NCBI RefSeq assembly: GCF_015644725.1
Contig: NZ_CP064795.1
Span: 1,424,501-1,488,500 of the forward strand
Direction: 5' to 3'
Origin: Salinimonas marina
GTDB taxonomy: Bacteria; Pseudomonadota; Gammaproteobacteria; Enterobacterales; Alteromonadaceae
Length of the DNA stretch: 64,000 nucleotides
Below are positions 13,595 through 55,377 of the stretch, one piece after another. The notes under the pieces were generated by a model. It worked only from the letters and a program-made list of their open reading frames with translations. It ran no database searches and was not told where the DNA came from. The first letter of the stretch is position 1, and the number at the start of each line of letters is the position of its first letter. The position numbers were made by a program, and so were the translations under genes.

Positions 13595-16500
13595 TTGCTT
13601 GCACTTTACCCTTCAAACAAACTTGAACATCTGAGCTTTTTGCTTGGCGCCCTGATCAAGCAACAACCCGGGCCCCGTTGCAAGCCGAAACCATCCTGGT
13701 GGAAAGTCCCGGAATGCAGCATTGGCTGAACATGGAGCTGGCCCGAGAGCAGGGCATTGCGATGAATCTGTCCTTTCCCTTGCCTACCCGGTTTATGTGG
13801 AATACTGCCCGACAGGTGCTGGGCGAGGATAAAGTACCGCGCCAATCGGTGTACCGGCGTGAAGTATTGGTGTGGCGAATCGAAAAGCTTATTCAGGAGC
13901 CTGAGTTTTGCGCCTTGCCCGAAGCGCAGCCGGTGTGCCGGTACTGGCAACATATTGAAGATACCGACGAGCAGGCGGTGCAACGGTTACAGTTTGCAAC
14001 GGCGTTAGCCGATGTGTTTGAACAATACCAGCTATACCGGCCTGAATGGTTGTTTGCCTGGGAAGCCAATACCACAGTGCTGTCTGACAGCGAGGATGAA
14101 CGATGGCAGGCGGCAATCTGGCAGCGCCTGGTAGAGGAGGCGCCGCTGCATCCGGCCCGTTTGCATCAGCAAGCCGTCACTACTTTGCACGAACAGGGTT
14201 GCGACGCGTTGCCCGCACGGATCATTGTTTTTGCGATTAACACCATGGCCCCGCAATTGGTGCAGTTTTTTGATGCACTGGCGCAGCATACTGACATTCA
14301 TCTGTTTCACTTAAATCCCAGCGTGTCCTATTGGGGGGAAACCAAGAGCGATCGTGAGCGCGCCCGCTTATTGCGCGAACAGGGCATCGCTCAGTGGCAG
14401 GAGACCAGCCAGGACAATCCGCTGCTGGGCAACCTGGGTAAACAGGGTCGTGATTTATTCAATTTGCTCACCGAACTCGATACCTTTGAAGTCAGTGCGT
14501 TTGATGTTGAAGCTCCCGAGGCGTCAGCCAGTGCCAGCACCTTGTTGAATCAGCTTCAGCAGGATATCTTACACGCCCGGCCCGCCAATGCCGGCCGTCA
14601 GTCCGTTGCTAGCGACGACAGTATTACTTTGATAAAAGCGCACAGCCCGCTTCGCGAAGTGCAGGCATTGCATGATTATCTGTTGTATCAAATGCAACAA
14701 AGCCCGGACCTGGCGCCTGGTGATATTGTGGTGATGTGCCCGGCCATTGAAGACTATGCGCCATTAATCGATGCAGTTTTTCATCGGGTTGGCACGTCGG
14801 CCCCGGCGCAAAGCACACCTCCGCGTATTGTATGTTCGATTGCCGATCGCTCGCCGCTGGATGCTGAACCATTGATTGCGGCTTTTCTGAGTTTACTAAG
14901 CCTGCCTGACAGTCGTTTCGAAGTTTCCAAAATTATGGATTATTTGCGTCTGGATGCCATGCGCAAAAAGTTTGGCCTGGCCGCAGAAGATCTTGATCTT
15001 ATGCAATACTGGTTAGAGCAGGCCCATGTGCATTGGGGGCTGGATGGTCAGCATAAACGCCAGGTCACCCGGCAGGTGGACGACAGCTACGCATTTAGCT
15101 GGTACTGGGGGCTGGAACGCTTACTTACCGGAATGGCTCTGGGCGACAGCGCGCTCATCTATAACAACATGCTTAGTGTGCCCCATGTAGAAGGGCAAAA
15201 CAGCGTGGTGCTGGGCAAGCTAATAAGCCTGGTCAGCCAGCTTAAGCACTACGCCGGGGAGCTTAACCAGGCGCGTACAGCCCAGGATTGGCATCAATTT
15301 TTAATGACCATGCGCACCGACTGCTTTGAGCCGGATAACGACCAACTGGATGTATGGGAAAGTATCAGTAAGGCCACCGCCGATCTTGCCGCCCACTGTG
15401 ATGAAGCCGGTTACGAGGCACTGCTTACCCTCAGACAAATAAAAGAAGTTCTGGTAAAGCGGTTTTCATCACCAGATGCAGGTAATCACTTTTTGACCGG
15501 CCAGGTAACTTTTTGCTCCATGCTGCCCATGCGCAGTATTCCCTTCAAGGTCGTGTGCATTCTGGGCTTAAATGATGGTGAGTTTCCCCGGCAATCCCAG
15601 CCCATCAGCATTGACCTGATGGCCAACAGCAGCCGCAAGATTGGTGATCGGTCCAGGCGTCTTGAAGATCGTTACCTGTTTTTAGAAGCGTTAATATCGG
15701 CCCGGACTCATCTGTATCTGAGCTATCAGGCAAACAGCGCCCAGGACAACAGTGAACGCCAACCCTCTTTGGTTCTGGCGGAATTTCAACAGGTATTAAC
15801 GGCTTATAGCCCAGCCGCGGGCGAACCTCAACAACTGTCTTTGCACCCCTTCAGCGTAGCAGGGTTTCAGCGTTCGCAGCCGGGCTTCGAAAAAGGCTGG
15901 CTGCGCCTGGCGCAGGCCATTGCTGTTTATCATGAGCAGCCGATAGGCACGTTCAGTCCATTGCCTGACCCGCGCCTGCCCGACAGCATCAGCCCGGCTG
16001 AAATGGCCCGGGCGTTGTGCCAGCCGTTTAAGTATTTTGCCAATCAGCAACTGGGGTTGTATTTAGAAGCCGCTCAGCCGGGCTTAAATGATGCAGAGCC
16101 TTTTAGTGCTAATAATCTCACCCGTTTTCAGACCTTAAGCGCATTGAATGAAGCCCGGCACGAACAACGCGACCCGGCACAAATTCTCAATCAAACCCAG
16201 CTTTCAGGTGACTTACCCACCACCCCGCTGGCAACAGAGCTACTTGAACAGTGGGATCGCGCCTCTGAGTTGATGATGGCGCAGGTACACTCTCAAAGGC
16301 TTATTGAAAAAGCCTACAGCTGGTATTGCGGCCAAAGTCAGTTGACCACTACGGTGTGGCAACAGGACACTCAGCAAAATCCGCCGCAAACCCTGGACAC
16401 CCACTTTTTGGTTACCTGGCACAGCGGTGCGCAAAATACGTCGCGCTTGCTACAGCAATACATCAGTATGCTGATGGCAAATGCCCAGGGCGAGCATGTG

Positions 16501-16902
16501 GGTATGTTAAGTTTTTATTGTAAATGGAAAAAAGGGGAGCCTGAGCTTCATAAGGCTACGTTTGAACCCTGCAGCCCCGAAACCGCCGACCATTTACTTA
16601 ATAAACTGGCACAGGCGTTTATGGCGCTGCACCAGCAACCCATGGCCTGGCTGGCGGATGTGGCGCTGACCTTACTGCGAAAATCCAAAGAGCAGCCGCT
16701 TGACGAGTGGGGCTTACGCAGTGACGCCCAGTTTGAATGGCAAAAAATCTGGGAAGGCAACAGCATGAGTGCCGGTTTAAAAGAAGATACTTATCTGCAG
16801 TGGTTTTTTCCTCATGGTCTGGCGCTCGCCGACTTACCGCTCCAACAGTACGAAGCTCTATTTCGGCCATTGCTTAATCAGTATTCGGAGAAAAAGTTAT
16901 GA
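13595..16902 (+). CDS. recC: RecC subunit of exodeoxyribonuclease V (one frameshift as sequenced)
   Basis: RecC is the subunit of RecBCD that recognises Chi and splits the duplex during double-strand break repair. The uninterrupted frame starts at 13678, but the family N terminus (LYPSNKLEHLSFLLGALI) is encoded just upstream in another frame. The frames join if one C is added to the CCCC run at 13673-13676, giving about 1102 residues, normal for RecC. No ATG is in frame ahead of it; TTG at 13595 is the most likely start. The core motif ILVESPGMQHWL and the inactive-helicase region ILGLNDGEFPRQ are clear. The stop overlaps the recB start as ATGA, so recC-recB-recD form one operon. I read the break as an assembly error, since recB and recD show the same defect. 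Confidence 0.9.
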
Positions 16903-19900
16903 GTGGCCATATTCCCGTCACAGCCAGGCCGTTAGACGTTACGAGCATGCCGTTATCGGGCCGGCACCTGATTGAAGCGAGCGCCGGCACCGGCAAAACA
17001 TTCAATATCACCCGGCTGTATTTGCGTTTACTGTTAGAAAAAAAGCTTACCGTACAGCAAATTCTGGTAATGACGTTTACCAATGCTGCTACCGAGGAAA
17101 TCCGCGGGCGTATTGCCGAAACCTTACGCGAGGCGGCGATGCTGTGGCGCACGGGAGCCGAACAGGGGCAGTTGCCCGACACCGCCGATCCGGTTTTTTG
17201 CGCGCTGTACGCTGAATTTCATGAGCCTGTTCATCAAAGTATTATTGAAGCGGCCTTGCTGGAGCTGGATGAAGCTGCGGTGTTCACCATACATGGTTTT
17301 TGCCACCGTATTTTATCAGAACTGGCGTTTACCAGCGCCGCAGCGATGCAATTGTCACTTTCTACCGATACCCGCGCCTTGTATTTGCAGGCGGCGCAGG
17401 ACTGGATCCGCCAGCAGGCTAAAGACGCCGAAGCCTATCTTCAGCTTATGCAACAGGGCTGGCATACGCCTGAAACCTTGCTCAACACCTTTGAAAGCGC
17501 GATACGCTCGGGCTTAACGCCCCGCTTTTTGAGCCCGGAGCAAATTCAGAGTCAGGCGCACGAAGCAATACAGCAATACCGCGAGCAATTGCAGTCAGAT
17601 TTTCAGGCACTGGAAACCGAACTTGCGCCTTATTTCAGTGATATCGAAACCAACCTGGTGGCTGCAGTAAAAGACCCGGCCGTCAGGCATGCCCAGTGGC
17701 AGGATATTCTTGAGTGGCTGGCGGTCAGAGAAGCACAACCTCTGCCTGCCGACTTTAATAAATTTGCCCACCACAGTCGCTTTAAGTCGTGCCCGGAACT
17801 TAAACCTGTCTTCGCCCGTCTGCGTGAATTCGCCAACAACATTAAAAAGGTGCTGGCCGAGCAACAAAAACAACAGGACACGATGCTGGAGCAGGCGCCC
17901 ACCATGCAGATTATTGCACAGGGCTTTGACTTTATCCGCCAGCATGTGGCCCGACAAAAGCGCCAGCAGGGGTAGTGGACTTTGATGATTTGATTGCGTT
18001 ACTGGCCGAGCAGGTAAATGCGCCGGATACGCCGCTCGCCATCCAGCTACGCCAGAAGTATCCGGCAGCGTTGATTGATGAATTTCAGGATACTGACGCC
18101 AGCCAGTACCAGATTCTATCGAATATTTATCAGCCCCAGTGTCCTCAGGTATTGCTGATGATTGGGGATCCCAAGCAAGCCATTTACGGGTTTCGTGGCG
18201 GTGATATCTTTACCTACCTGGAGGCGGGTCAAAGCGCCGACCACCGCTGGGTAATGGATACGAACTGGCGTTCCACCGCGCCCATGGTGGCCAGCTACAA
18301 CCGGTTATTCTATGGGGCGCCATTAACCGGTGCGCCTGCTGATGTGTTCGGATTTGGTATTACTTACGAACCGGTGGAAGCCACCCCCACGCCAAAGCCA
18401 ACAAGGCATTATTGTGTGACGAGGCGCCGGGGCGAGCTGCGCTCACTTACGCTTGCGTGGATACCAGTGAAATGGGCGATAAACCGGCCAAAGGCCAGTT
18501 GCAACAGCAATTGGCACGCTGGGTGGCCGATGAGATTGTACGTCTGCTTAATGGCGCCCGCCTGGGCGAAGACGCGTTACAGCCTCAGGATATCGCTATT
18601 CTGGTTCGAAGTGGCCCCGAGGCGGCCGTGGTGCAAAATGCCCTGCGCCGGGTCAATCTGGCCTCGGTGTTTTTGAGTAACCGTACCAATTTGTTTGCCT
18701 CGCACGAAGCTCAGGATTTGTACCGGGTGTTGGACGGCATCTGGCATTATCAGCAATCTCACCGGTTGTCGGCCGCCTTATCCAGTCCCCTGTTTGGCTT
18801 GTCCCATGCGCAGCTGACCAATCTGTTGTACCACGAGGACGATAATGCATGGGAAGCGATGATGGATGAGGTGCTGTTACTGCGCCAGATGTGGCAACAA
18901 CGTGGTTGTATGACCCTGATTCTGTATTTGCTGGAAGAGCACTTTGCATCTTTTGAAGACAGTATGGAACGGCGTCTGACAAACTATTTGCATCTGGCCG
19001 AAGTGCTGGAGCGCGAGTCAGCTGTGCAGGAGCATGCGCAGCAACTGCTGATCTGGTTGCACCGCCAAATCAGTGAGCCGCAATTGGCGCAGGAGCAAAT
19101 CCAGCGCCTGGAAAGTGATGCACAACTGATTCAGCTGGTTACCCAGCATGGCTCAAAAGGCCTGGAATACCCCATCGTGTTTGTGCCGTTTGCCAGCGAT
19201 TATCGTGACCCGGCAAAAGTCGGCAAACAGTATCAGGCAATGTATCGCTATTATGATGAACAAACCGCTGGGCTGACATTATTGCTGGGGCGCAGTGACC
19301 GTGCTATTGAACGGGTGCGGCGAGAAGGCAACGCCGAGTCTACCCGGTTGTTGTATGTAGCGGTAACCCGCGCGGCGCAGCGCTGCTACTTAGGAGTGGC
19401 GCCGTTTGAAAATCATCAGCAAAGCGCGCTGGCTCAGGCGTTAGACCTGGGTGAGGCCCAGGACTGGTCACAGGCCATTGATCGGGTGATTGCTGAAGGT
19501 GGTGAGCATACCGCCTGCACTTCGGTACCGGTTAGCCTGCCGGTTCGCGCTTTACAACAACAAGAGGCCCCAAACCACCCACTCAGTGTCGATACCTTTA
19601 CCGGTGAGGTCACCGAGCGCTGGCGCTTGTATTCGTTTTCAGCGCTGGCCCGGCGGCAGATGGTGGTCAACCGTACCCGCCGCGAAGCTGAGCTGGATAA
19701 TGCCCGACTGCTGGCTGACGAGGCAAACGAGAGCGACACGGCGAGCCTGCCATTTCGGTTTCGATTTACCAAAGGTGCCGCCGCCGGTAATTTGCTGCAC
19801 GATATTCTGGAACATTGTGATTTTACTCAGCCTGACTGGCAGAGCGGGGCCATGGATATGGCCCAACGATTTGGCGTTGAACACAACCAGTTGCCAAACT

Positions 19901-20481
19901 TTTTTCAATGGCTTGATGAGGTCCTGGCGGCGCCGCTCAACAATGACGGTTTAACGCTGGATTCATTGCCAGAGACAGCAACCCTGCGCGAAGCAGAGTT
20001 TTATTTTCCATTGAATACCGTCAATCTGTTTCAGCTTAACCAGTTTCTGGCAGGCTATCGCCAGCAGGCTGCCGGCCAGGGGCCGTTTATGGTAAATCTG
20101 GATACCAAAAAGCTTGAAGGTCTGATGCATGGGTTTATTGATTTGATCTTTGTATTCGAGGGACGCTATTTTGTGGCCGATTACAAATCCACTCATCTGG
20201 GTGACAGTTATGCCGGTTACCAGCAAGCCCGGCTTACCCAGAACAATCAGCATCATTTATACGATCTGCAGTACTTAATTTATGCGGTGGCTCTGCATCG
20301 TTATCTGCAAACCAAACTGCCCGGTTATCATCCTTCCAGCCATTTTGGTGGCGTGTATTATTTATACCTGCGGGGCATGCACCCGGATAATCAGGAGCAT
20401 CAGGGGGTTTATCATGCCCGGCCCACAGATGAGCAGTTGCTGGCGTTAGATGCTATTTTTAAACATGCAGAGGCAAGCTAA
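16899..20481 (+). CDS. recB: RecB subunit of exodeoxyribonuclease V (two frameshifts as sequenced)
   Basis: RecB is the 3'-5' helicase and nuclease of RecBCD. The Walker A motif EASAGTGKT ends at residue 34, the helicase motif GDPKQAIYGFRGGDIF is near 18160, and the nuclease motif VADYKSTHLG is near 20175. The gene is cut into three frames. Adding one G to the GGGG run at 17969-17972 restores QQGVVDFDDLIALL, and adding one C to the CCCCC run at 18384-18388 restores VEATPHAKANKALLCDE. The corrected product is about 1194 residues, the usual RecB length, with no other lesion. Both defects lie in homopolymers. Recombination would be lost if they were real. The gene follows recC with an ATGA overlap and abuts recD. 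Confidence 0.93.
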
Positions 20482-22361: not shown

Positions 22362-22496
22362 GCCAGGTGCGGCTATGTGATGTAACCGCTTCAGCGTAGC
22401 TGACGCGGCTCGTTTTTACCGGACATCGATTTTTATTCGGTTGCAGGTGCTGCAACCAAAGTTATAGCTTTATGTTGACTCAAAACAGGGAGAACA

Positions 22497-24880
22497 ATGG
22501 TGCGTAAATGGTGGGCGTTAGCGTTAATTCTGAACTGCTCGGTAGTCTGGGCAGCATTACCCGGGATACAAGAATTCACCCGGGATATGTCTTATAAAGA
22601 GGGTTTTATTCCGTTTTATTACGATAAGGCCAGTGACAAAGTGTACCTGGAATTGTCGCGCTTTGATGCACCGTTATTGTTTCAAAGTTCATTGCCTTAT
22701 GGGGTAGGCTCAAACGATATCGGCCTGGATCGCGGTCAGTTAGGCGACACGCGTCTGGTGCAGTTTGAACGCTATGGCCACAAGGTCATGTTGAAACAGC
22801 TCAACACCCGGTTTCGGGCCCAAACCGATAACCAGGCAGAACAGGACAGTGTACAGGAAGCCTTTGCTGACTCTGTTATTGCCGGATTTAAAGTGGTGGC
22901 CGGCACCGACGATACGGTGCTTATTAATTACACTCCCTATTTGCTTACCGACGTTCACGGTATCGCCCTGCGGTTAGAACAAACCGGGCAGGGGAGCTAT
23001 AAAGCCGACGCTGGTCGTAGCGGCGTGTTCCTGCCCGCACCAAAGCGTTTGAGAAAAATACCGAGTTAGAAGCGCTGGTGACCTTCGGGGGCAGCAATCC
23101 GGGCAAATATGTACAGGCAGTGACCCCGGATCCCACCAGTATTACCGTGCATCTTCATCATAGCTTTATCGCGCTTCCCGACGACGGCTATGAGCCGCGG
23201 GCCTATCATCCCTACAGTGGTTACTGGAAAACCAGCTTTTTTGATTATGCCACCGGTATCAGTGAACCATTAGAGCAGCGCTACATTACCCGTCATCGCC
23301 TGGCCAAAAAAGATGTCGGGGCGAAACAATCAGAGCCGGTTGAGCCTATTGTGTATTACCTGGATCCGGGGATTCCCGAGCCGGTGATGAGCGCGCTTAA
23401 AGATGGCGCCAGCTGGTGGAACCAGGCGTTTGAGGCGGCTGGGTATACCAATGCCTTTCAGGTGAAGGTGTTACCCGCAGACGCCGACCCGATGGACGTG
23501 CGCTACAATGTGATTCAGTGGGTGCACCGGGCCACACGAGGCTGGTCCTATGGTAGCTCGGTTGTTGATCCGCGCACCGGCGAGATCATCAAAGGGCATG
23601 TGACCCTGGGATCGCTTCGGGTCCGCCAGGATTATCTGATTGCCCTGGGGCTGACCAGTCCGTTTGCTGATACCAAACAAACCGACGAGCAGCAGCAGAT
23701 GGCATTGGATCGCATTCGTCAGTTGTCAGCCCATGAGGTAGGCCATACTCTGGGGGTCGCTCATAACTTTGCGGCAAGCGAAGATGGCCGCGAATCGGTG
23801 ATGGATTATCCGCACCCGCAAATTACCCTAAACAATGGCGAAATCTCCCTGGCCAATGCTTACGATAAAGGCATGGGGCAGTGGGACCTGCATGCGATTG
23901 CCTATGGTTATCAGGATTACCCCGAGGAGGCCCAGGAGCAGGCCGGACTTGCCCGGCAGATTAAACAAAGCCGGGAGGCGGGACTCAGCTTTAAAACTGA
24001 CTTTGATACCCGTTCATCTGCCAGCGCGTCGGCCAACGGCCATCTGTGGGAAAACGGCGCCGATCCGTTGCAAGAGTTGAACAAAATGGTGCGGATCCGG
24101 GAACTGGCACTGCAGAACATGGGCCTTGCTACTTTACCTGACAACCGCAGTTTGTCGGCCCTTGAAGATGCCCTGGTGCCGGTATATCTGCTGCATCGGT
24201 TTGCGGTGGTCGCCGCCGCTAAACAGGTGGGCGGACTGGTTTATGAATACGAGCAAAAAGGGGATTATGCGAAGCCGAAGGGACAACAACCGGTGGCAGC
24301 AGCAATTCAGAAACAGGCAATAAAAGCCGTTTTGGATACCACCACCGCGGAATTTTTGCGGTTACCCGAGTCACTTATCAAGCTGATCCCGCCGACTGCC
24401 TATGGCGATGATATTACCCGTGAACATTTCAACGGACGTATGGGGCTGCCCCTGGATCCGGTATCTGCTGCCGCCTCGGCAGCAAACTACAGTCTGGGAC
24501 TGCTGCTCACCCCGCAGCGGCTTAACCGGTTGGCCTGGCAGGCGAGTCAGGCGCGCGGACTGCCGGGCGTGCATGCCCTCACATTACGCATTTTTGAGCA
24601 GCACTGGTATAACAACAAAAGCGCCGACTACGGCTTGCAGAAGCGTTTGCGTATGGTCGCACTCAATGCCGTAATGCAAGCGGTGCAAAACCCGGAGCTG
24701 GCGCCGGAGGTCAGACTGGAAATGCAGTCGGTATTGTATAAATTCACTGACTGGCTTAAACAAGACAGTGGCCTGATGGAAGCCGGGGTGCTGCATCAGC
24801 AGATGACCCATTACTGGCAGACCGGCCAGTGGCAGGCAGGCTTTGAGGTGCCGGCGTTGCCCCCAGGCTCCCCCATCTGA
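22497..24880 (+). CDS. Secreted zinc-dependent metalloprotease, DUF5117/DUF4953-like (one frameshift as sequenced)
   Basis: The protein begins with a clear Sec signal peptide (MVRKWWALALILNCSVVWA) and an AGGGAG ribosome-binding site lies 6 bases before the ATG. The N-terminal region resembles the DUF5117 domain (EGFIPFYYDKASDKVYLEL), and the central catalytic motif HEVGHTLGVAHNF at about 23732-23770 is the extended HExxHxxGxxH zinc site of metzincin-like proteases, followed by SVMDYPHP. The frame is broken near 23036; adding one C to the CCC run at 23034-23036 joins LPRTKAFEKNTELEALVTF and yields about 794 residues. The substrate is unknown. The gene lies 135 bases after recD and converges on the AstE-like gene. 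I expect the real gene to be intact. Confidence 0.87.
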
Positions 24881-24897
24881 AATACCCCGTTGCAGGC

Positions 24898-24921
24898 AGA
24901 CGGACCCGGGCGGGTTCGTCT
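24898..24921. terminator. Hairpin between convergent genes
   Basis: AGACGGACCC and GGGTTCGTCT pair around a GGGC loop with one wobble. It lies between the stops of two convergent genes and touches the stop codon of the minus-strand gene. No T tract follows on either strand, so termination by it is uncertain. Confidence 0.4.
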
Positions 24922-26049
24922 ACTCGCTTTCGGTTAAGGTGTAATACTGGGTAAAGACCTTGTACAACTGCGTACCGCTTAGTACCGACGCGGACGGGAA
25001 GTGCAAAATAGGAATGAGGTCGCACGGCGCGGTTAGAGTAAACGTTGCGTTTTCATTATCCAGCTCATCGATATTCAGCACCCGGGCCAGTGGCTCGCCT
25101 TTACTGACCGGGCTGCCCGGGCGCGCGCAGTATTCCACCATGCCGCCAAAATCGGTGTACAGGGTTTTATAATTTGCCAGCTCCACACCTACCCGACGCA
25201 TTGCTTTGGGTTGAAAGCGTGTTTCATTCAATACCCCGCGCTGATTCAGATAAGTAAGAATGCTGATGGCGTCCTGTTCACCGTCATCAAAATGAACCAC
25301 TTCCTGAGACCCCATCTCCAGGGTCATCGCTTCGATGCCAAAATCCGGCGTCTCGCCGAAGCGTTCAGCCAGTGCGGATTGCAACGTCCACCACGGGCAA
25401 AAGGTGGCTTCGTCCAGGGCCCCGGCAAAAACATTAGGAATAAATATACAGTGCTCGATGTTAAAGCAGTAGGCCGCGGCGCGGGCATTCTGCGGGATAT
25501 AGATATGCCGCGCCGAGACCGGGCCGTTATGTAAATCCAGCACATAATCAGCATCAACCGCCAGCCGCTGCAATTGCAAGTTGAGTTGTTGGGCCAGTCC
25601 CAGGCCCCAGGGCGACGCCAGCTTGTCTTCGATAGCCTCTTGCCAGTAAGCGCGAAAGCGTTGTTTGATTTGGCTCACGGGAGTACCGGATGCTACCGTC
25701 GCGGCAAACTCGAGTACCCGCGACTCATCATAAAAGTAACCCCGGTTCCAGTTGGTCCCATTCACCGGATCGAAGCGGCCCAGGGTGTACTCACCTGCTT
25801 TAATGTTGGTACCGATAGGATTGCAGTTGGGCACCAGTATCACTTCCCCTGAACCGCCAGCTTTTTTAGCTTTTGCAATAAATGAAAAATAACCACATTG
25901 CCCTGAACTTCGGCGCCGTGGATAGAGCTTTGAATATACACTTTGGGGCCAGGCCGCCCGGCGGTCAGCCGGTAAACCGGGACATTCATATTGCGACCCG
26001 AAGCATTTTGAGCCACCACCAAATGCGATTTGGTTACGGTAACGGACAT
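24920..26049 (-). CDS. Succinylglutamate desuccinylase/aspartoacylase-like zinc hydrolase (one frameshift as sequenced)
   Basis: This is an M14-like AstE/AspA family protein. Zinc-site features are SSIHGAEVQGN in the N-terminal part and VLDLHNGP later; NCNPIGTNI and a TLEMG motif with a possible catalytic Glu are also visible. A C-terminal barrel-like domain (KGEPLARVLN region) completes it. The frame is cut after LQKLKKLAVQG; adding one base to the run at 25846-25849 (GGGG on the coding strand) restores QGEVILVPNCNPIG and about 376 residues in all. I chose the ATG at 26049 because an AAGGGGATG element precedes it and the upstream residues look noncoding. Family members remove acyl groups from amino acids; the exact substrate is unknown. 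It lies just beyond the moeB stop on the same strand (80 bases), so the two may be cotranscribed. Confidence 0.85.
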
Positions 26050-26129
26050 ATCATCCCCTTGGAGAAAACAGAAAAAAAATGGCGTTGCGGCAGGAAATCC
26101 TGGTTTACCAGCACTCAGCGCAAGGCTTG

Positions 26130-30175: not shown

Positions 30176-31190
30176 GCTTTACCCCCGCCGCCGACTTTAG
30201 TCTTGATATTCAAATACCCGGTAACCGCCAGGAGGGGTTTTTGGGACTCACAGGGCCTTCTGGGCGGGTAAAAGTACTTTGTTGCGTTGTCTGGCCGGAC
30301 TTGAAGAACACGCCACCGTGTCAGGCAACTGGCAGTCTGTTGAATGGAATAAGGCAAGGGTCGGGTTGGTATTTCAGGATTCGCTCCTGTTTCCGCATCT
30401 GTCAGTGGGGCAAAATCTGTTACTGTCCAACGATTTTGCCCGGAAGCAAACCCATTGGTTTGATGAAGTGGTGTTAGGCTGCCAGTGTAACCATCTGCTG
30501 CAGCGCATGCCTGCCAGCTTGTCCGGCGGTGAAGCTCAGCGGGTGGCCCTGGCGCGGGCGATTCTCAATTCGCCGGATATCTTGCTATTGGATGAGCCGG
30601 TGAGCGCTCTCGATACCCATACCCGTCATGCCATCCTGAGTTATTTACGCACCCTGGCCGCCGGTGGCTTGCCAATATTACTGGTCAGTCACGACTTATC
30701 TGATTTGTCAGTGTATTGTCCGTCGCTGGTGTACATTGAGGCGGGTCGCTGTGTCTTCTATGATCAGACTCAAAAGGTGCTGGATGAGGTGTACCAACAT
30801 TCAAAATCTATGGCCACCACGCGTTTTGGGTTATTACAGGGCCCGGTTGTCGAGACGCATCCACATGGGCTGGTGGAGTTTTGCTGTGAGGGCCAGAGCT
30901 TGTTTGCCGAATACCCTTTTATTCATAATGAGCAGGTGGCATTGTCGATTGCTGCCGGGGCGGTCACCATTGACCGGGAATTGAACGCGGCCAGCAGTGC
31001 TACCAACTGTTTTGTGTGTGTGGTGCTGGCGGTGAAGCCTGAGGAAAATGGCCACTTTCTGGTGGCGCTGGGCTGTGGCCAAACCCGACTCTATGCACGG
31101 CTCAACGCCATCGCCTACACGCAGCTGAATTTACAAACGGGCGAGCAGGTGGCTGCCCGTTTTGCCACTCATTCCTTTGATGCGACTTGA
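30160..31190 (+). CDS. modC: Molybdate ABC transporter ATPase ModC (one frameshift as sequenced)
   Basis: ModC powers ModB and usually carries a C-terminal molybdate-binding Mop-like domain. The start is GTG at 30160, preceded by GGAGGAGG about 8 bases away, overlapping the modB end by 16 bases. The Walker A loop is broken: adding one G to the GGG run at 30262-30264 restores GLTGPSGAGKSTLLRCLAGLE. The signature LSGGEAQRVALARA, Walker B ILLLDEPVSALD and the switch His in LVSHD are intact in the longer frame, and the corrected product is about 343 residues. The C-terminal part (LARLNAIAYTQLNL region) fits the regulatory domain. The coding frame continues open for 40 codons past the TGA stop; see the separate entry. 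Confidence 0.93.
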
Positions 31191-32896: not shown

Positions 32897-34117
32897 ATGC
32901 ACTTCGAATACAATGAAAAAACCACCCGGCTCGCAGAGCAGCTGACCGCCTTTATGGACCAGCATGTGTATCCCATAGAACAGGAATACAGCACCTTGTT
33001 CAGTGAGCCTCACCATCAATGGCGTACTCCGGAAGTAATGGATGAGCTTAAACAAAAAGCCCGCGCCGAAGGCTTATGGAATTTATTTTTGCCAGAAGAG
33101 TATCAGCCTTATGGCGCTGGCCTGACCAACCTGGAATACGCCCCGCTGTGTGAAATTATGGGGCGGGTATTGTTCAGCTCGGAAATATTTAATTGCAGTG
33201 CGCCGGATACCGGCAATATGGAAGTGCTGGCCAAGTACGGCAGTTCAGCACAGCAACAAGCCTGGCTCACGCCGCTGTTAGAAGGCCAGATTCGTTCTGC
33301 CTTTGCCATGACCGAGCCGGATGTGGCCTCGTGTGATGCCACCAATATTGAAACATCTATCCGCCGCGACGGCGATAACTATGTCATCAATGGCCGTAAA
33401 TGGTATACCAGCGGGGCGATGAACGATAACTGCAAAATACTGATTGTCATGGGTAAAACCGATCCAAATGCGCCTCGACATCAACAGCAGTCGCAGATAC
33501 TGGTGCCCATGGATACCCCCGGCGTCAATATTGTGCGGCCCATGTCGGCCATGAATATGCTGGATGAGCCAATCGGCCATGCGGAAATTGTGTTCGACAA
33601 TGTCAGGGTACCTGCACAGAATATTATTTTGGGCGAAGGTCGAGGGTTTGAAATTGCCCAGGGGCGGTTGGGGCCGGGCCGAATTCATCATTGTATGCGC
33701 TTGATAGGCTGCGCCCAGCGGGCCCTGGAGATGGCATGTGAGCGGGTGAATCAACGTGTGGCCTTTGGCAAACCGCTTGCCAAACAACAGTCAGTACGCG
33801 AGTCTATTGCACAGATGCACTGTGATATAGAGCAGGCCCGCTTACTGACCATGAAAGCCGCCGACCAGATGGATCGTCATGGTAATAAAGTGGCCAAAGA
33901 TATTATTGCGGCGATCAAAATTGTGGCGCCTAAAATGGCCTGCCGGGTTATCGATGAGGCCATTCAGATGTTTGGCGGCATGGGCACCAGTCAGGACACG
34001 CCATTGGCAGCGATGTATGCCTATGCCAGGACCATACGCCTGGCGGACGGTCCGGATCAGGTGCATATGATGCAATTGGGTAAAAGCCTGATAGAAAAAA
34101 GGCAGGGAGATAAGTAA
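32897..34117 (+). CDS. Acyl-CoA dehydrogenase, ACAD10/11-like
   Basis: A 406-residue flavin enzyme that would form the first double bond of an acyl-CoA in the matrix of a catabolic pathway. The FAD- and substrate-binding motif [16 protein letters not shown] and the C-terminal [18 protein letters not shown] segment are clear. Its sequence resembles the dehydrogenase part of ACAD10/11 proteins, and the next gene encodes the kinase-like part, which in eukaryotes is fused to it. An AAGGAG element precedes the ATG. It follows the phosphatase gene by 14 bases and precedes the kinase gene by 3 bases. Confidence 0.92.
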
Positions 34118-34120: not shown

Positions 34121-35169
34121 ATGAAAGTAAGTCAGCTCGATGTTGTGGCGCTTAACCGGTACTTAAAAGCCGAAGTTCCTGAACTTGGCGAGATCACCGG
34201 GTATGAAAAATTCAGTGGCGGTCAGTCAAACCCAACCTTTTTGTTGTCCACCACCAACGGTCGATATGTTCTGCGTCGCCAGCCCCCGGGGCGCTGTTAA
34301 AGTCCGCCCATGCGGTAGACCGTGAATATACAGTGATGCAGGCGCTGGGCAACACCAGGGTGCCTGTGCCACAAATGCTGCATCTGTGTCAGGACAGTAC
34401 GGTGATTGGCAGCCTGTTTTTTATCATGGAGTTTGTAGAAGGAACCATTTACTGGGAAGCAGCGCTGAGTAAAGTCGATGACAATACTGCCCGGGGACAG
34501 ATGTATGATGCCATGAATCAAACCCTGGCAGCCTTGCATGACATAAACCCGGCCAGCATTGGTCTTGAAAACTTTGGTAAGCCGGGCAACTACTTTGCTC
34601 GTCAGGTCGATCGCTGGACGACTCAGTATCGTGCCTCGCAAACCCAGGATCTCGAGCCCATGGAAGCGCTGATTACGTACCTGAACCACAATATTCCCGC
34701 CGATGACGGGCAGGTGGCATTGGTACATGGCGACTTTCGTCTGGATAACATGATATTTAGCAATGAGCAGCCGGATAAGATTCTGGCGGTGCTGGACTGG
34801 GAACTATCCACATTAGGCCATCCATTTGCCGACCTGGCGTATCAGTGTATGCAATTACGCCTGCCTGCCAATTTACCGCAGGCCCCTGGCCTGGGCGGAT
34901 TGGCTCGCGCTGACCTTGGAATTCCGACCGAGCGTGAGTATGTGCAAAGCTATTGCCAGCGACGAAATATCGACGGGATTGAAAACTGGCCGTTTTATCT
35001 GGCTTTCAGCTTTTTCAGACTCGCCGCCATTATCCAGGGCGTAGTTAAGCGAGCCCGTGATGGTAACGCATCAAGCGATAAAGCCGCCGAAATGGATCGT
35101 ATGGTCGCGCCGCTGGCAACGATGGCGATGGATGTGGTAAACAAGGAGCAGCCTAATGTCCAATTCTAA
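34121..35169 (+). CDS. Aminoglycoside-phosphotransferase-like kinase, ACAD10/11-type (one frameshift as sequenced)
   Basis: A member of the APH/choline kinase fold. The catalytic loop HGDFRLDNM and the metal-binding VLDWELSTLGHP are intact. The sequence breaks near 34291; adding one G to the GGGG run at 34288-34291 joins RRQPPGALLKSAHAVDREY and gives about 349 residues from ATG 34121. In related ACAD10/11 proteins this kinase phosphorylates 4-hydroxyacyl-CoAs so that the dehydrogenase can isomerise them. The pairing with an acyl-CoA dehydrogenase and a phosphatase suggests a 4-hydroxy-acid or lactone degradation route here; that is inference. It overlaps the next gene by 14 bases. Confidence 0.9.
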
Positions 35170-43490: not shown

Positions 43491-43509
43491 GAGTCAAATA
43501 CTGAAGTAC

Positions 43510-45317: not shown

Positions 45318-45411
45318 AGCACAATGCTGATTAAAACCGCGGGATTAGTAATCAATCTGAGCAATTATTCTGCGGTTAGTAAAAAACTAACTAAATAAAC
45401 CAATCAGGGGC

Positions 45412-45439: not shown

Positions 45440-45496
45440 ACGCACCACTTGAGCGGAGCAGGTCACCAGGACCACACGTTCAAATGATAGTTCGGA

Positions 45497-45573
<77 letters not shown>

Positions 45574-45646
45574 AACATCTGATTGAACAAAATACAGGTT
45601 CAGTCGTAGTAGTATCTAGCAACATTATGTTGTAAAAAGTTTCTGG

Positions 45647-45723
<77 letters not shown>

Positions 45724-45754
45724 TTTTCATAATCCAGAAATTAACCAGTTCAGA

Positions 45755-45831
<77 letters not shown>

Positions 45832-45837
45832 CATTTG

Positions 45838-45867
45838 AAGCCACTCAATTTGAGTGGCTTTTTTTGT
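45838..45867 (+). terminator. Intrinsic terminator of the tRNA cluster
   Basis: AAGCCACTCAA, a short TT-containing loop and TTGAGTGGCTT are followed by TTTTTT. Confidence 0.94.
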
Positions 45868-46114
45868 ATCTGGTGTTTTATTTTACCAGCCCTTGGCCTT
45901 AAAAGTACCAATGGGTATTGGTCTGCACACGCTTTAGCAAATCTTCATACCTCAGTTGTGCCTCACAGTTGATACAGTGGCAGCATTGATTCAATGTGCT
46001 TATGTGATTATTGATCTATCTTTGAAACGATGCCGGTTGCCTTAAGCGGGGACAGCAATCAGCGTTGAGTTTCAAAGTGCTCATCAGTCTTATCTAAAAG
46101 GATGTTCAGACAAT

Positions 46115-49100: not shown

Positions 49101-49465
49101 TAGAGCAAAGTGCCTCACACTCTGGTAAAGCCCAGGATTTGTTGGATATGGCAGCCATTCAGGTGAAGTACCTTCACAATGAGCCTGCGCTTATTAAACC
49201 AGCTCAACCAGCAGGTCGGGACGGGCAGTTTGATGCAGAGACGTTGTACGAGGCCTTGCAAATACTGCACACCAGCGTCATCCAAAACCAGGTGAATGAA
49301 GTGCACCTTGAAGCACTACAAGCCATGCCTGCGGGGGAGTTTGCCTCGCAACTTCAAAGTGTGCTGACCGACATTGATGATTTTGAATTTGAACACGCCG
49401 CAAATAAATTGACAGTCTTGCTAGGGAAGTTGCAGGAAGTAGCACATGAGGAACAACCATGCTAA
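46115..49465 (+). CDS. MHYT-PAS hybrid sensor histidine kinase with receiver and Hpt domains
   Basis: A 1116-residue membrane kinase. The N-terminal seven-segment MHYT sensor shows the repeated motif in its three copies (GMHFVGM, SMHYTGM, AMHYTGM), proposed in this family to bind copper and sense gases. Two PAS domains follow (about 275-390 and 400-520), then HisKA with the phospho-acceptor His550 in ANMSHEIRTPMN, an HATPase domain with DTGIGMSKEQL and GGTGLGT, a receiver with Asp832 in VLMDLQMP and an Hpt domain with His975 in SHSLKG. This supports an intramolecular His-Asp-His relay. The gene overlaps the following HD-GYP response regulator by seven bases, so that protein is its likely output. 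It lies between the tRNA cluster and rimP. Confidence 0.94.
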   Translation: MQFVDWVVNFFQVSPNALVLTGSYSASLIGLSLTIAIFASFMAFTVAHQAATAASRLQKQLLLLVGSMALGVGIWGMHFVGMLAFDLSTPVQYDLRNTFLSFIPGWLAAWVALSLLTSKTIHLRQILMGGFLTGAGIGSMHYTGMAAMEMAPLLKYNATVFGLSIIVAVVLAMLAIWIRFGLARVQRLSGAHYRVIGAASVVMGLAIGAMHYTGMSAARFVAPAGVDLPQQQGHISVLLAAMVAFLIVVFIAVVLGVSVLVKYRNASKEAKQSQRTLLAMMDTAVDGILTFDGRGKILNANPAVCEITGYSREELLNQNVRLLIPENRRRIYDPALDANKLNSLKSKIMNGNQDRQALHKNGHLVPIRVGVGHTKVADKDYYVAFLSDIRERISMEKQLRSNEAKFRSFFDNVPGLAYRCLDEPGGPMLFVTDAIKAMTGYPASDFVLPNPRRSFLDLYHPDDLPTIAKANGNKKTFVLEYRIIHRDGSIRWFREQGVAVQSEEENVRWLDGFIFDITERRTMENELVQAKVAAEQAASARSSFLANMSHEIRTPMNAIIGFSDLMLHEALNKEQHKHVVTINRSARSLLHLLNDILDSAKLDKGKLDLDLRNFVLTEEVDTVVSTFWLEAKRKSLELEIVMEDGLEPVYNGAPERIRQVLGNLINNAVKFTEQGSITLKVGPAKSGFIGFTIRDTGIGMSKEQLARVFDAFAQADATMSRKFGGTGLGTTISKQLVELMGGRISAKSEPGHGSEFYFELPLAAANADERCISDSELEVPAQHILVVDDIRQNIDLICLLLKRHGHSTEVARNGQEALDLMACRDFDLVLMDLQMPVLDGLSAARQRREYERQNQLPQLPFIALTASVLVQDKNAAMNAGMEGFANKPIDYEQLNREMARVLGLIEDLPLSPTEQPQNDTDMQMVDWAKGELLWGNQGAHVEEIRRFLNGFDMAFSSLQNAVATGDTQAIKSISHSLKGVTGNLGLNMLMTSFRQLEQSASHSGKAQDLLDMAAIQVKYLHNEPALIKPAQPAGRDGQFDAETLYEALQILHTSVIQNQVNEVHLEALQAMPAGEFASQLQSVLTDIDDFEFEHAANKLTVLLGKLQEVAHEEQPC

Positions 49466-50451
49466 ATACACAACGTACCGCAACGTTGTTACTGGTGGAT
49501 GATGAGCCGGTTAACTTAAGGGTACTAAAGCAGCTACTCGGTGCGCACTATAATCTGGTATTTGCAAAAAATGGTGAGGAAGCCATACGTCTGGCTACCT
49601 CGCAATTGCCTGATCTGATTTTACTGGATGTGATGATGCCGGGCATGACCGGCTTTGAAGTTTGTCAGTCGCTGAAACTCAGAACCGAAACCCGGGCAAT
49701 CCCGATAATTTTTGTTACCGCCTTGAGTGAGGAACATGATGAGGCCCGTGGCTTTGAAGTCGGAGGGGTGGATTATGTGACCAAACCAATTTCACCCTCA
49801 GTGGTTCAGGCCAGGGTCAAAACCCATTTGTCCCTGATGCAGGCAGACGAGCTTAAACGCACCCGTTTGCAGGTCATCCAGCGATTGGGCCGGGCGGCCG
49901 AATACAAAGACAACGAAACCGGCATGCACGTGCTGCGAATGAGTCACTTTTCAAAAGTATTGGCGCTGGCCTGGGGGTTTTCAGCGGATCAGGCCGATAT
50001 TTTGTTGCATGCGGCACCGATGCACGACATTGGCAAAATTGGCATTCCCGATGCTATTTTGCAAAAGCCGGACAGACTGACGGATGAGGAGTACGAAATC
50101 ATGAAAACCCATCCGCTCATCGGCGCAGAAATTCTTGGGGATGCGAACTCTAAATTATTGCAAATTGCCAAGTCGGTGGCATTAACCCATCACGAAAAAT
50201 GGGATGGCACGGGCTATCCAAATGGTCTAAAGGGTGAACAAATTCCCATTGAGGGCCGTATAGTGGCAGTAGCGGATGTGTTTGATGCACTAACCAGTAA
50301 GCGTCCCTATAAAGGTGCCTGGACACTGGAACAGACGCTGGCCGAAATGCGCGCCCAGAAAGGCCGGCATTTTGAACCCAGGCTGGTGGACCTACTGGAG
50401 CAGAACCTGGATGAAATTCTGACTATCAAAGCGCAGTTTGAAGATGACTGA
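49459..50451 (+). CDS. HD-GYP response regulator (cyclic-di-GMP phosphodiesterase)
   Basis: A 330-residue two-domain protein. The N-terminal receiver carries the phospho-acceptor Asp57 in LILLDVMMPG with DD near residue 15, and the C-terminal HD-GYP domain carries HD at 189-190 in HDIGKIGIP and GYP at 252-254 in WDGTGYPNGL. Both are intact, so it should hydrolyse cyclic-di-GMP when phosphorylated. Its ATG lies inside the end of the hybrid kinase gene, indicating coupling. With the GGDEF-EAL protein at the left end of the window, this makes two cyclic-di-GMP modules in 64 kb. Confidence 0.95.
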   Translation: MLNTQRTATLLLVDDEPVNLRVLKQLLGAHYNLVFAKNGEEAIRLATSQLPDLILLDVMMPGMTGFEVCQSLKLRTETRAIPIIFVTALSEEHDEARGFEVGGVDYVTKPISPSVVQARVKTHLSLMQADELKRTRLQVIQRLGRAAEYKDNETGMHVLRMSHFSKVLALAWGFSADQADILLHAAPMHDIGKIGIPDAILQKPDRLTDEEYEIMKTHPLIGAEILGDANSKLLQIAKSVALTHHEKWDGTGYPNGLKGEQIPIEGRIVAVADVFDALTSKRPYKGAWTLEQTLAEMRAQKGRHFEPRLVDLLEQNLDEILTIKAQFEDD

Positions 50452-50632
50452 GCCGCGCGGTTGCTAAGTTACTTCAGAGCCAGTATACTATGCGCACATA
50501 ACCAGCTGGAGTAAGCATTAGCTATGCGTACTTATGTTTTTCCAGCCGTTTTTTGTTGTTAGGCATTAACATGGCAACAACAAAAAATGTGTGCAACTGC
50601 CAGTCTGGTAGTCTGGGTTCAGTTTTTTTCCA

Positions 50633-50660
50633 AAAAGCCCCGCTGGTCCGGGGCTTTTTG
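50633..50660 (+). terminator. Intrinsic terminator before the rimP operon
   Basis: AAAAAGCCCCG, CTGGTC and CGGGGCTTTTT make a strong hairpin with T tract. It separates the HD-GYP gene from rimP. A second, weaker GGGC-loop-GCCC stem followed by seven T at 50712-50731 lies only 18 bases before the rimP start and could act as an attenuator or be incidental. Confidence 0.85.
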
Positions 50661-50748
50661 TTGTATCGACTTTGAGCCGTAGCTGCTCAGACAGGGTGTT
50701 AATTATCAGTTGGGCTTTAGGCCCTTTTTTTGTTTTTGGAGGTTAGGA

Positions 50749-51207
50749 TTGGCAAAGCTTGAAGATAAGCTGACCGAAATGCTGGAGCCGGCGGTAGAGG
50801 CGTTGGGCTTCGAACTTGTGGGTGTCGAGTATGTTCGTGCTGGTAAGCACTCAATTTTGCGAGTGTATATTGAGCATGAGAATGGCATCACCGTAGATGA
50901 TTGTGCGGACGTCAGTAATCAAGTTAGCGCAATCCTGGACGTCGAAGATCCCATTAGCAATGAATATAATCTGGAAGTTTCTTCCCCCGGTATGGAACGG
51001 CCGCTGTTCAAAGAAAAACACTTTGCAGACGCGGTCGGTGAAATCGTACAGATTCGTCTGACAATGCCCATGGATAACAGACGCAACTTTAAAGGACCAT
51101 TACTTGCCTGTGAAAACGGCACGGTAAGTATTGAAGTGGATGGCCAGCAGTTCCAGTTAGCTGTGGCGAATATCGATAAAGCTAACGTTGTTCCCACATT
51201 CGACTAA
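50749..51207 (+). CDS. rimP: Ribosome maturation factor RimP
   Basis: A 152-residue RimP, which assists 30S subunit assembly. The family opening [43 protein letters not shown] and VDGQQF segments are clear. The proper start is the TTG at 50749, with GGAGG six bases earlier; starting at 50710 would add a nonfamily stretch that belongs to the attenuator-like leader. It is the first gene of the nusA-infB operon. A TTG start together with a stem-loop close by may keep expression low. Confidence 0.93.
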
Positions 51208-51253
51208 CGGAACAGTACGCGCTTTCATATCAGGAAGCATTAGTGAGGCGAAC

Positions 51254-52747
51254 ATGAATAAAGAAATTTTGTTAGTGGCGGAAGCCGTTTCAAATGAAAA
51301 ACAAGTGCCCCGGGAAAAGATTTTTGAAGCATTGGAATTTGCTATTGCCAGTGCGACTAAGAAAAAGAACGAAGGCGACATAGAAGTACGGGTCAGTATT
51401 GATCAGCGTACCGGCGATTTTGATACATTTCGTCGCTGGTTAGTGATTGAAGATGATCAGGAACAAACCAACCCGTATGCAGAAATTACGATTTCTGCAG
51501 CGCAGGTCGACGAACCCGATCTGCAACTGGGCGATTATGTTGAAGAACAGATTGAATCAATTAAATTCGACCGCATAACTACTCAGACCGCCAAACAGGT
51601 TATCGTGCAAAAGGTTCGTGAAGCCGAACGGGCACAAATGATTGCCGAGTACGAAGACAAGGTTGGCGAACTGGTTACCGGTACAATTAAGAAAGTAAAT
51701 CGTGACAACATCATTGTTGATTTAGGCAACAACGCCGAAGGCGTTATCTATCGTGATGATATGTTGCCGCGCGAAACCTTCCGTCCAGGCGACCGGGTGC
51801 GCGGATTACTGTATGTTATTCGCCCCGAAGCACGTGGCGCGCAGTTGTTTATCAGCCGGACTCATCCAGACATGCTGGTTGAGCTGTTCCGCTTAGAAGT
51901 GCCGGAAATTGCAGAAGAAACTCTGGAAATTAAATCGGCAGCGCGGGATCCGGGTTCGCGGGCAAAAATCGCGGTTAAAACCAACGACAAACGTCTTGAT
52001 CCGGTTGGGGCGTGTGTGGGTATGCGTGGTTCACGTGTACAGGCGGTTTCGGGTGAACTTGGCGGTGAGCGGGTTGATATTGTGCTGTGGGATGAAAATC
52101 CGGCGCAGTTTGTTATCAATGCTATGGCCCCGGCCGAAGTTGCCTCTATCGTGGTTGATGAAGACAATAACACCATGGATGTGGCGGTAGAAGCCGACAA
52201 CCTGGCACAGGCCATTGGCCGTAGCGGACAAAATGTGCGTCTGGCCAGTCAGTTGACCGGTTGGGAGCTAAACGTGATGACCATTGATGATCTCAATGCG
52301 AAGCACGAAGAAGAAAACTCAAAAGTGTTGAAGCTGTTCACAGAATATCTGGACATTGATGAAGATTTTGCCGGTGTGCTGGTGGACGAAGGATTCAGTA
52401 CGCTGGAAGAAGTGGCCTATGTGCCTGTAAGCGAACTGCTGGCCATTGAAGGGCTGGATGAAGATATGGTCGAAGAGCTGCGTAATCGTGCCCGTGCAGT
52501 ATTGACCACTAAGGCGCTGGCCAGTGAAGAATCACTGGAAGGTGCCGAGCCAACTGAAGCCTTGCTGAATTTAGAAGGCATGAGCAAACATGTCGCATAT
52601 CTACTGGCCAGCCGCGGCATCACCGACTTAGAAGAGTTGGCAGAGCAGGGCACAGACGATATAAGCGATATTGATGAACTAGACGAAGAGAGCGCCGGTA
52701 AACTTATCATGGCTGCCCGTAATATCGTCTGGTTTAATGAAGAATAA
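51254..52747 (+). CDS. nusA: Transcription termination/antitermination protein NusA
   Basis: A 497-residue NusA with normal domain order: N-terminal RNA-polymerase-binding domain, S1 domain (near residues 130-200, [21 protein letters not shown]), two KH domains ([14 protein letters not shown] and [14 protein letters not shown]), and two acidic C-terminal repeats typical of gammaproteobacterial NusA. I choose ATG 51254 ([13 protein letters not shown]), 46 bases after rimP. It modulates pausing, termination and antitermination, and interacts with lambda N-like and rRNA antitermination factors. infB follows by 24 bases. Confidence 0.97.
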
Positions 52748-52771
52748 GGTCAACAAGGGGATAAACACGTA

Positions 52772-55377
52772 ATGGCAGAAGTATCTGTAGAAAAGCTCGC
52801 CAGTGACATCGGAACGACCGTTGACCGTCTGGTTACTCAGTTTAAAGATGCAGGCATCACTAAAGATGCAAATGAACAGGTGACCGAAGACGAGAAACGA
52901 CAGCTTCTTGATCATCTGAGCAAGCAACACGGCAGTACCGGTGGCATTAGCGAGCCAAGCCGCATGACACTGCAACGTAAAACCACCAGTACGCTGAGTG
53001 TAGGCAAATCAAAGTCAGTCAAGGTTGAAGTACGTAAGAAGCGTACCTACGTTAAACGTAGCGACATTGAAGAGCAGAAGCGTCAGGAAGAAGAAGCTCG
53101 TCTGCAACAGGAAGCAGAAGAAAAAGCGGCTGCCGAAGCGGCAGAAGCAAAACGTATTGCCCAGGAAAAGGCCCGTCAGGAAGCCGAAGCGAAAAAAGCG
53201 GCTGATGAAGCGGCAAAAGCAAAACGTGAAGCTCAGAAAGAAGCATCAGCAGAGCAACCTGCCGGCAAGCCTGAAGCCGAGATGAGTGCTGAAGAAAAAG
53301 CCGAAGCCGAAGCTGCCCGTAAAGAAGAAGAGCGTCTTCGCCAGGCTCAGGAGTCTGAAGCACAGAAGAAATACGAAGAAGAAGCAAAGCGTGCAGCTGA
53401 AGAAGCTCGTAAACTGGCTGAAGAAAATGAGCGTCGCTGGAAAGAAGAAGAAGAGCGCCGCAAACGTCAGGAAGCCGAAGAAGTACACTTGCATTCTAAT
53501 CGTTATGCGCAACAGGCTGAAGATGAACAGGATCAGCAGGTTGAGCGCACCCCACGACGTCGTAAGAAGTCGAAGAAAAACGCAGGAGAACATTTGAAGC
53601 AAAGCTTTAATAAACCAGCACAACCCGTAGAACGTGTTGTGAAAATAGGCGCAACCATTACGGTTGGCGAACTTGCCAGTCGACTGGCGGTCAAGTCTAA
53701 TACTGTTATCAAGACCATGATGAAAATGGGCGAGATGGCAACCATTAACCAGGTTCTCGACCAGGAAACTGCCGTATTGGTGGTTGAAGAAATGGGTCAC
53801 AAATATGAACTGGTTAATGACAATGCACTTGAAGAAGAATTGTTAGCCGAAGGCACCGACGGTGAAATTGTACCGCGAGCGCCGGTGGTAACCATCATGG
53901 GTCACGTTGACCATGGTAAAACCTCATTACTGGATTACATTCGCCGCGCGAAAGTTGCTGCAGGCGAAGCCGGTGGTATTACCCAGCACATTGGTGCTTA
54001 TAAGGTTCAGTCAGATAATGGCGATGTCACCTTCCTGGATACACCAGGACACGCCGCGTTTACCGCCATGCGTGCACGTGGTGCGACCGCCACCGATATC
54101 GTTATTCTGGTCGTGGCCGCCGACGATGGCGTAATGCCGCAAACCAAAGAAGCAGTACAACACAGCCGCGCTGCGGGTGTGCCACTGATTGTTGCGGTTA
54201 ACAAGATGGACAAAGAATCAGCTGACCCAGAGCGGGTTAAAACTGAGCTGTCTCAGCTTGAAGTTATCTCTGAAGAGTGGGGCGGTGAGCACCAGTTTGT
54301 GAATGTTTCTGCCAAAACCGGTATGGGCGTTGACCAGCTGCTGGAAGCCATCAACCTGCAGGCGGAACTGCTAGACCTTAAAGCCGTTGAAAAAGGCCCG
54401 GGTCGCGGTATTGTTATTGAGTCTCGTCTGGATAAAGGGCGTGGACCAGTTGCTTCGGTACTGATTCAGGAAGGCGAGCTACGCGCTGGCGATATCCTGT
54501 TGTGTGGTGAAGAATATGGCCGTGTTCGTGCGATGCGCGATGAAAACGGCATTGAGATTAAAGTGGCTGGCCCTCTACTCCGGTAGAAGTGCTGGGCTTA
54601 TCGGGTGTACCGGTTGCTGGTGAAGACGCCGCAGTAGTGAACGACGAGCGTAAGGCCCGTGAAGTTGCTTCTAAGCGCCATCAGAAAAAACGCGAGATTA
54701 AACTGGCCCGTCAGCAGAAAGCTAAACTTGAAAACATGTTCTCAAACATGGCCTCAGGTGAAGTCAGCGAGCTGAACATCGTCCTTAAAGCGGATGTACA
54801 AGGTTCCGTAGAAGCCATCGCCGAGTCACTGGCGAAGCTGTCGACCAGCGAAGTTAAGGTCAACATCGTGGGTAGTGGTGTTGGTGGTATTACAGAAACC
54901 GACGCCACGCTGGCAGCCGCTTCTGGCGCTATCGTAGTTGGCTTTAATGTCCGTGCTGATGCCTCAGCGCGTCGCGTACTGGAAAGCGAAGAAATTGACC
55001 TGCGCTATTACAGCGTTATTTATAATCTGATTGATGAAGTGAAAGCGGCCATGAGTGGTATGCTGGCACCAGAATTCAAACAGGAAATCATTGGTCTGGC
55101 TCAAGTACGTGATGTCTTTAAGTCGCCGAAGCTGGGTGCGATTGCCGGCTGTATGGTTACTGAAGGCGTGATTAAACGTAGTGCACCGATCCGGGTTCTG
55201 CGTGAAAACGTTGTAATCTATGAAGGTGAGCTTGAGTCACTGCGCCGCTTCAAAGACGACGTACAGGATGTACGTAACGGTATGGAGTGTGGTATCGGCG
55301 TTAAGAACTACAACGATGTTAAGGTCGGAGACCAAATCGAGGTGTTCCAGGTGATTGAGGTTGCCCGCGAGATTTAA
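52772..55377 (+). CDS. infB: Translation initiation factor IF-2 (one frameshift as sequenced)
   Basis: IF-2 is the GTPase that positions initiator tRNA on the ribosome. The charged Lys/Glu-rich linker (about residues 75-280) and GTPase motifs [20 protein letters not shown] and [10 protein letters not shown] are all present. The sequence breaks near 54574; adding one T in the CCCT region restores [17 protein letters not shown] and gives about 868 residues, normal for the family. infB is essential, so the break must be an error in the sequence or assembly. It follows nusA and precedes an internal terminator and rbfA. Confidence 0.97.

What the first reader, a model, noticed from the sequence alone, without database searches (positions are those of the whole stretch)
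13595..55377. Nine single-base deletions break otherwise full-length genes
recC, recB (twice), recD, the zinc protease, the AstE-like gene, modC, the kinase-like gene and infB are each interrupted. In every case one missing base restores the protein exactly, and every corrected length is divisible by three. Eight of nine sites lie in G or C runs of three to five bases. infB is essential, so it cannot really be broken. This points to consensus indel errors in the assembly, not pseudogenes, and anyone annotating this DNA automatically would lose RecBCD and IF-2.
Basis: partly seen in the sequence, partly recalled or inferred. Interest (0 to 1): 0.7.

Follow-up and report, generated by a model that had tools for sequence, protein, structure and literature searches.

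The report
Sequencing errors that fake broken genes
Eight genes in this marine bacterium's DNA look broken at nine places, but the breaks are almost certainly single letters lost when the genome was assembled, so they are ordinary sequencing errors and not real biology.

Summary
The window lies in a 3.77-Mb single-contig Alteromonas genome. Frameshift-aware alignment to three relatives finds each of the nine breaks, in eight genes, each equal to one missing base. They are not special to this region: 260 kb around and including the window holds 35 such sites in 180,775 aligned coding bases, after four dropped rows. Relatives compared with each other by tblastn gave 0 joints in 123,260 and 0 in 122,293 bases. 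33 of 35 sites have a G or C run of three or more close by (random 23.5%), 26 of 35 a run of four or more (random 5.8%). Independently of coding, rRNA copies of this genome differ by six one-base gaps in G/C runs, one inside the conserved 23S stretch GACGGAAAGACCCC. The broken genes have no other lesion and the same purifying selection as unbroken ones. So: uncorrected consensus deletions, about one per 5 kb of coding DNA, not a biological feature. Raw reads were not available, so the final proof is missing.

The parts
13595..16902 (+). recC, one apparent break near 13673 beside GGGCCCC
   Evidence: TIGR01450 match of 13678-16902; one base missing against G009, G004 and G065
16899..20481 (+). 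recB, two apparent breaks, near 17973 (GGGG) and 18386 (CCCCC)
   Evidence: UvrD and PD-(D/E)XK domains on the pieces; 58 of 58 other genomes of the genus searched keep recB in one open frame of at least 1194 aa
20482..22350 (+). recD, one apparent break between about 21901 and 21913 (GGGGG); end approximate
   Evidence: RecD_N and AAA_19 domains
22497..24880 (+). zinc metalloprotease-like gene (DUF5117 and met-zincin DUF4953), one apparent break near 23037 (CCC)
   Evidence: DUF5117 is split over the two pieces
24920..26050 (-). AstE/AspA-like gene, one apparent break near 25850 (GGGG on the coding strand); 5' end approximate
   Evidence: PF24827
30160..31190 (+). modC, one apparent break near 30265 (GGGCGGG)
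   Evidence: ABC_tran and TOBE domains on 30279-31190
34121..35169 (+). phosphotransferase (kinase-like) gene next to an acyl-CoA dehydrogenase, one apparent break near 34292 (CCCCCGGGG)
   Evidence: PF01636 on 34333-35169, acyl-CoA dehydrogenase domains on 32897-34117
52772..55377 (+). infB (IF-2), one apparent break near 54575 (CCC); pieces of 604 and 262 aa
   Evidence: TIGR00487 matches profile positions 2-319 and 326-585 on the two pieces; one 868-aa ORF in A. lipotrueiana; 78 of 80 fetched relatives have a frame of at least 800 aa

Best explanation
The nine breaks are consensus errors in the assembly: single bases dropped at short G or C runs. The living cell very probably carries intact recC, recB, recD, infB and the others. 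In the 260 kb tested there is about one such error per 5.2 kb of aligned coding sequence, which would be about 700 in the genome if uniform (extrapolation). Shown: the missing bases, their one direction, their G/C-run context, their spread over 260 kb, similar gaps in rRNA, intact copies in relatives, no other lesion, normal selection. Inferred: that the source is an insufficiently polished long-read assembly, because a 3.77-Mb genome with several rRNA operons is held as a single contig. The platform is not known.
For: 35 of 35 merged sites in the 260-kb block are missing bases, 1 per 5,165 aligned coding bases; tblastn controls between relatives 0 joints in 123,260 and 0 in 122,293 bases. 26 of 35 sites have a G/C run of 4 or more nearby against 5.8% of random coding positions, binomial tail 2.5e-25; A/T runs of 4 or more are at 2 of 35 against 14.4%. 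rRNA copies of the genome differ by six one-base gaps in G/C runs of 4 to 6; the short form of GACGGAAAGACCCCGTGAACC occurs in 1 of 60 genomes, this one, at one place, beside three places with the long form; the long form occurs in 35 of 60. prfC at 2.66 Mb is also split into two frames (number of missing bases not tested). pN/pS against G065: 13 broken genes median 0.110, 60 unbroken 0.140, Mann-Whitney p=0.60. 0 of the eight window genes has a stop codon in its aligned codons. 58 of 58 other genomes of the genus keep recB in one frame.
Against: No reads and no second assembly of this strain were available. G/C runs of 4 and 5 are not depleted; they are commoner here (361.5 and 70.4 per 100 kb) than in G009 (240.0, 48.5) and G004 (235.4, 49.2). 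The lack of A/T sites differs from the nanopore profile in PMC12007338 (section read), where A/T runs dominate. Six of 35 sites lie in the 12.5-kb recC-to-AstE stretch: binomial p=0.028 by bases, 0.072 by G/C runs, region chosen after the fact. Two of the six rRNA gaps share one column (two copies each way) and may be true variation.
Confidence: 0.97

Rival explanations
1. Real pseudogenes: a strain that has recently lost recBCD and neighbouring genes by slippage deletions.
For: Mild excess of sites in the recC-to-AstE stretch (6 of 35). A very recent loss would leave no trace in selection or other lesions.
Against: infB is hit too; pN/pS is the same as in unbroken genes; none of the eight genes has a stop codon or further frame break; the same kind of gap occurs in rRNA and in many genes outside.
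Confidence: 0.02
2. A real mutator or slippage-prone strain with many true G/C-run deletions, rescued by ribosomal or transcriptional slippage.
For: One direction and a run context fit slippage as well as they fit sequencing error.
Against: About 35 sites in 260 kb including infB would hardly be viable (inference); slippage at G/C runs of 3-5 is not known to me as an efficient rescue (recalled); rRNA cannot be rescued by translation; relatives do not show it.
Confidence: 0.005
3. Naturally split or programmed-frameshift genes, for example an IF-2 made of two chains: the second frame's GTG (54589) lies just after the first frame's stop (54586).
For: The position of that GTG.
Against: Not conserved: A. 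lipotrueiana has one 868-aa infB ORF and 78 of 80 fetched relatives a frame of at least 800 aa (of the other two, L081 runs off its contig and L073 has 452 aa, not followed up). recB is in one frame in 58 of 58.
Confidence: 0.003

Closest known systems
Gene-fragmenting indel errors of long-read bacterial assemblies (Kastor, PMC12007338; abstract and section 6 seen)
   Same: False deletions at short homopolymers, there most often after runs of four to five, breaking genes into apparent pseudogenes across a genome.
   Different: There A/T runs are the commonest context with about half as many at G/C, and insertions occur; here A/T runs are not enriched and the 35 merged sites include no extra base.
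Gene decay in pseudogene-rich genomes (for example Aliivibrio salmonicida, PMC2627896; listing with start of abstract seen)
   Same: Frameshifts in otherwise complete genes.
   Different: Here no relaxed selection and no further lesions in the eight genes, and similar gaps in rRNA.

Membership tests
Homopolymer-deletion consensus error | One direction of error (deletions) | tested here: met
   35 of 35 merged sites missing (one 'extra' row was among the four dropped); 17 missing, 0 extra against G065
Homopolymer-deletion consensus error | Sites at homopolymer runs above chance | tested here: met
   33 of 35 at G/C runs of 3 or more, random 23.5%; 26 of 35 at 4 or more, random 5.8%
Homopolymer-deletion consensus error | Spread over the genome, also in RNA genes | tested here: met
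   260-kb block; rRNA copies near 0.43, 0.57 and 1.23 Mb; prfC split at 2.66 Mb. The rest of the genome was not examined.
Homopolymer-deletion consensus error | Accurate reads support the longer run | not testable with these tools
   no reads held
Pseudogene | Relaxed selection or further lesions in the broken gene | tested here: not met
   pN/pS median 0.110 (13 broken) against 0.140 (60 unbroken), p=0.60; no aligned stop codon in the eight window genes
Programmed frameshift or split gene | Break conserved in relatives | tested here: not met
   recB in one frame in 58 of 58 other genomes; infB frame of at least 800 aa in 78 of 80

The most novel reading that the evidence does not exclude
A living Alteromonas strain that really carries hundreds of G/C-run deletions, in rRNA and essential genes alike, and tolerates them by slippage during transcription or translation.
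Probability: 0.005. Interest if true: 0.9.

Novelty: not a real feature. Interest (0 to 1): 0.1.

Why it matters
Only as a quality warning: taken at face value this assembly would suggest the loss of RecBCD, IF-2 and release factor 3 and would inflate a pseudogene count. Comparing the genome's own rRNA copies is a check that needs no reference.

Tried and rejected
Run-length spectrum: I expected G/C runs of 4-6 to be depleted in this assembly; runs of 4 and 5 are instead commoner than in G009 and G004, so this gave no support.

Clustering around recBCD as a sign of real locus decay: p=0.028 by bases and 0.072 by G/C runs, region chosen after seeing the data. Rejected as weak; the G+C content there is also higher.

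Rows dropped before the count of 35: four events (three missing, one extra), three from query ORFs that also gave an event between control relatives (g004_90891, g009_148671, g004_136726) and one from an ORF beside the tRNA-Met cluster (g004_153538). One kept event (1,843 bases before the window) comes from a small ORF, g004_106456, that later also gave an event in a control, so it is doubtful; without it the count is 34. Two candidates seen only against G065 (20,098 bases before the window, and 57446) are not in the 35. One of the 21 tblastn joints with G004 is from a dropped ORF. The reverse tblastn, own ORFs on G009, gave 3 joints that I did not inspect.

Seven scattered 20-kb samples of the own genome (L116-L122) were used only for run-length counts and, for three of them, ORF lists, because I held no matching reference stretches.

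The sequencing platform could not be identified.

Full report
What the DNA is. The window is bases 1,424,501-1,488,500 of a 3,765,169-base, single-contig genome rated 99.95% complete. The infB C-terminal piece is 97% identical to Alteromonas lipotrueiana PS_109 and 88-93% to seven further Alteromonas in the list (80 best of a capped list). DNA identity to A. lipotrueiana over 48.6-57.3 kb is 82%. So it is an Alteromonas, a marine bacterium; among the 58 other genomes of the genus searched, the nearest by the recB piece is G065 at 84%. G065 has a contig of the same length (225,764) as the PS_109 contig and is probably that strain (inference).

Check of the nine breaks. ORFs of two relatives, G009 and G004, from the matching region were searched by tblastn against 260 kb of the own genome. 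Places where one protein continues in another frame numbered 21 with each reference (132,426 and 154,870 bases covered); with the same method G004 proteins on G009 and G009 proteins on G004 gave 0 and 0 (123,260 and 122,293 bases). Eight of the nine sites were among them. A frameshift-aware aligner then found all nine, including modC, and found them again with G065, where the eight proteins are 71-96% identical. Each is one missing base, and the contexts contain G/C runs of three to five. The eight genes' alignments to G065 contain no stop codon and no other frame break.

Not local. Merging G009 and G004 results gave 35 distinct sites in the 260-kb block, after four dropped rows, all missing bases, 1 per 5,165 aligned coding bases. 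Nine are in the window, which has 49,815 aligned coding bases, so the window is no worse than its surroundings. Taking the longest G/C run near each site, the hits against the number of such runs in aligned coding DNA were 7 against 3,106 (length 3), 19 against 685 (length 4), 7 against 127 (length 5) and 0 against 14 (length 6), lengths as they stand in the assembly; two sites have only shorter runs nearby. A/T runs of length 5 to 8, 705 in number, had no site close by.

Controls with the sensitive aligner were not quite empty: between relatives it gave 1 missing + 1 extra in 41,456 codons and 1 missing in 41,524, 1 extra in 30,358 and 3 missing + 2 extra in 28,992, in small or poorly matching ORFs. 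Against this genome it gave 27 missing in 45,072, 26 missing + 1 extra in 51,859 and 17 missing in 32,287.

rRNA as an independent test. The genome has four 23S matches and three full 16S copies plus a partial one. Outside longer variable blocks, which I did not examine base by base, the copies show six one-base gaps, all in G/C runs of four to six: one in a 16S copy, five in 23S copies, of which two are at one column and may be true variation. One further 16S difference of two bases is not in a run. One 23S copy lacks a C in GACGGAAAGACCCCGTGAACC, which I recall as part of the peptidyl-transferase loop. The short form was found in 1 of 60 genomes (this one, one place; its other three places have the long form), the long form in 35 of 60; 24 of 60 have neither exact form apart from those, presumably because rRNA is unassembled or differs elsewhere in the pattern (the own genome is counted in both).

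Other genes. The release factor 3 gene prfC at 2.66 Mb is cut into ORFs of 68 and 471 aa that match positions 3-66 and 62-527 of prfC models; whether one base is missing was not tested. infB is essential and prfC is not in Escherichia coli (both recalled).

Selection. Against G065, over genes with at least 150 aligned codons, pN/pS of 13 broken genes has median 0.110 and of 60 unbroken genes 0.140 (Mann-Whitney p=0.60). Segments on both sides of the breaks stay low in most genes (infB 0.049 and 0.025; recB 0.172, 0.066, 0.137); the short first segment of modC is 0.607. This speaks against old pseudogenes, not against very recent ones.

Relatives. recB is in one open frame of at least 1194 aa in 58 of 58 other genomes of the genus (own: 712). 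infB has a frame of at least 800 aa in 78 of 80 fetched relatives.

Verdict. What I add is the controls, the spread outside the window, the rRNA evidence and the G/C specificity. The last is not the profile described for nanopore assemblies in PMC12007338 (abstract and section 6 seen), where deletions at A/T runs are about twice as common as at G/C runs, so the platform stays open. The assembly itself is unnamed, so I could not look for a paper on it; a search for Alteromonas with complete genome, frameshift and homopolymer listed two papers, neither about it by title. After the return for checking I lowered the weight of prfC and of one candidate tenth break and added the missed controls; the odds did not need changing.

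Noticed in passing
window 57356-57682: A small lipoprotein-like gene (127-aa ORF in G065) has both an apparent missing base near 57446, not in a clear G/C run, and an aligned stop codon: unlike the nine, it may be a truly decayed or wrongly called gene.
   Followed up: partly
L148-L151 (23S rRNA copies of the own genome): Three of four 23S copies carry extra blocks of 114 and 103 nt, and one of them a further 91 nt; the copy at 3.73 Mb has none of these. They resemble intervening sequences (recalled).
   Followed up: no
L179 2501-2867 (own genome, about 432.5 kb): The 16S gene of this rRNA operon is present only from position 1170 to 1536, at 99.7% identity, upstream of a 23S gene: a truncated gene or a misassembled repeat.
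   Followed up: partly
L073: A Pseudoalteromonas contig in the named collection has an infB frame of only 452 aa that does not start at the contig edge held: perhaps the same kind of error elsewhere.
   Followed up: no
window 45497-45831: Three tRNA-Met genes in tandem.
   Followed up: no
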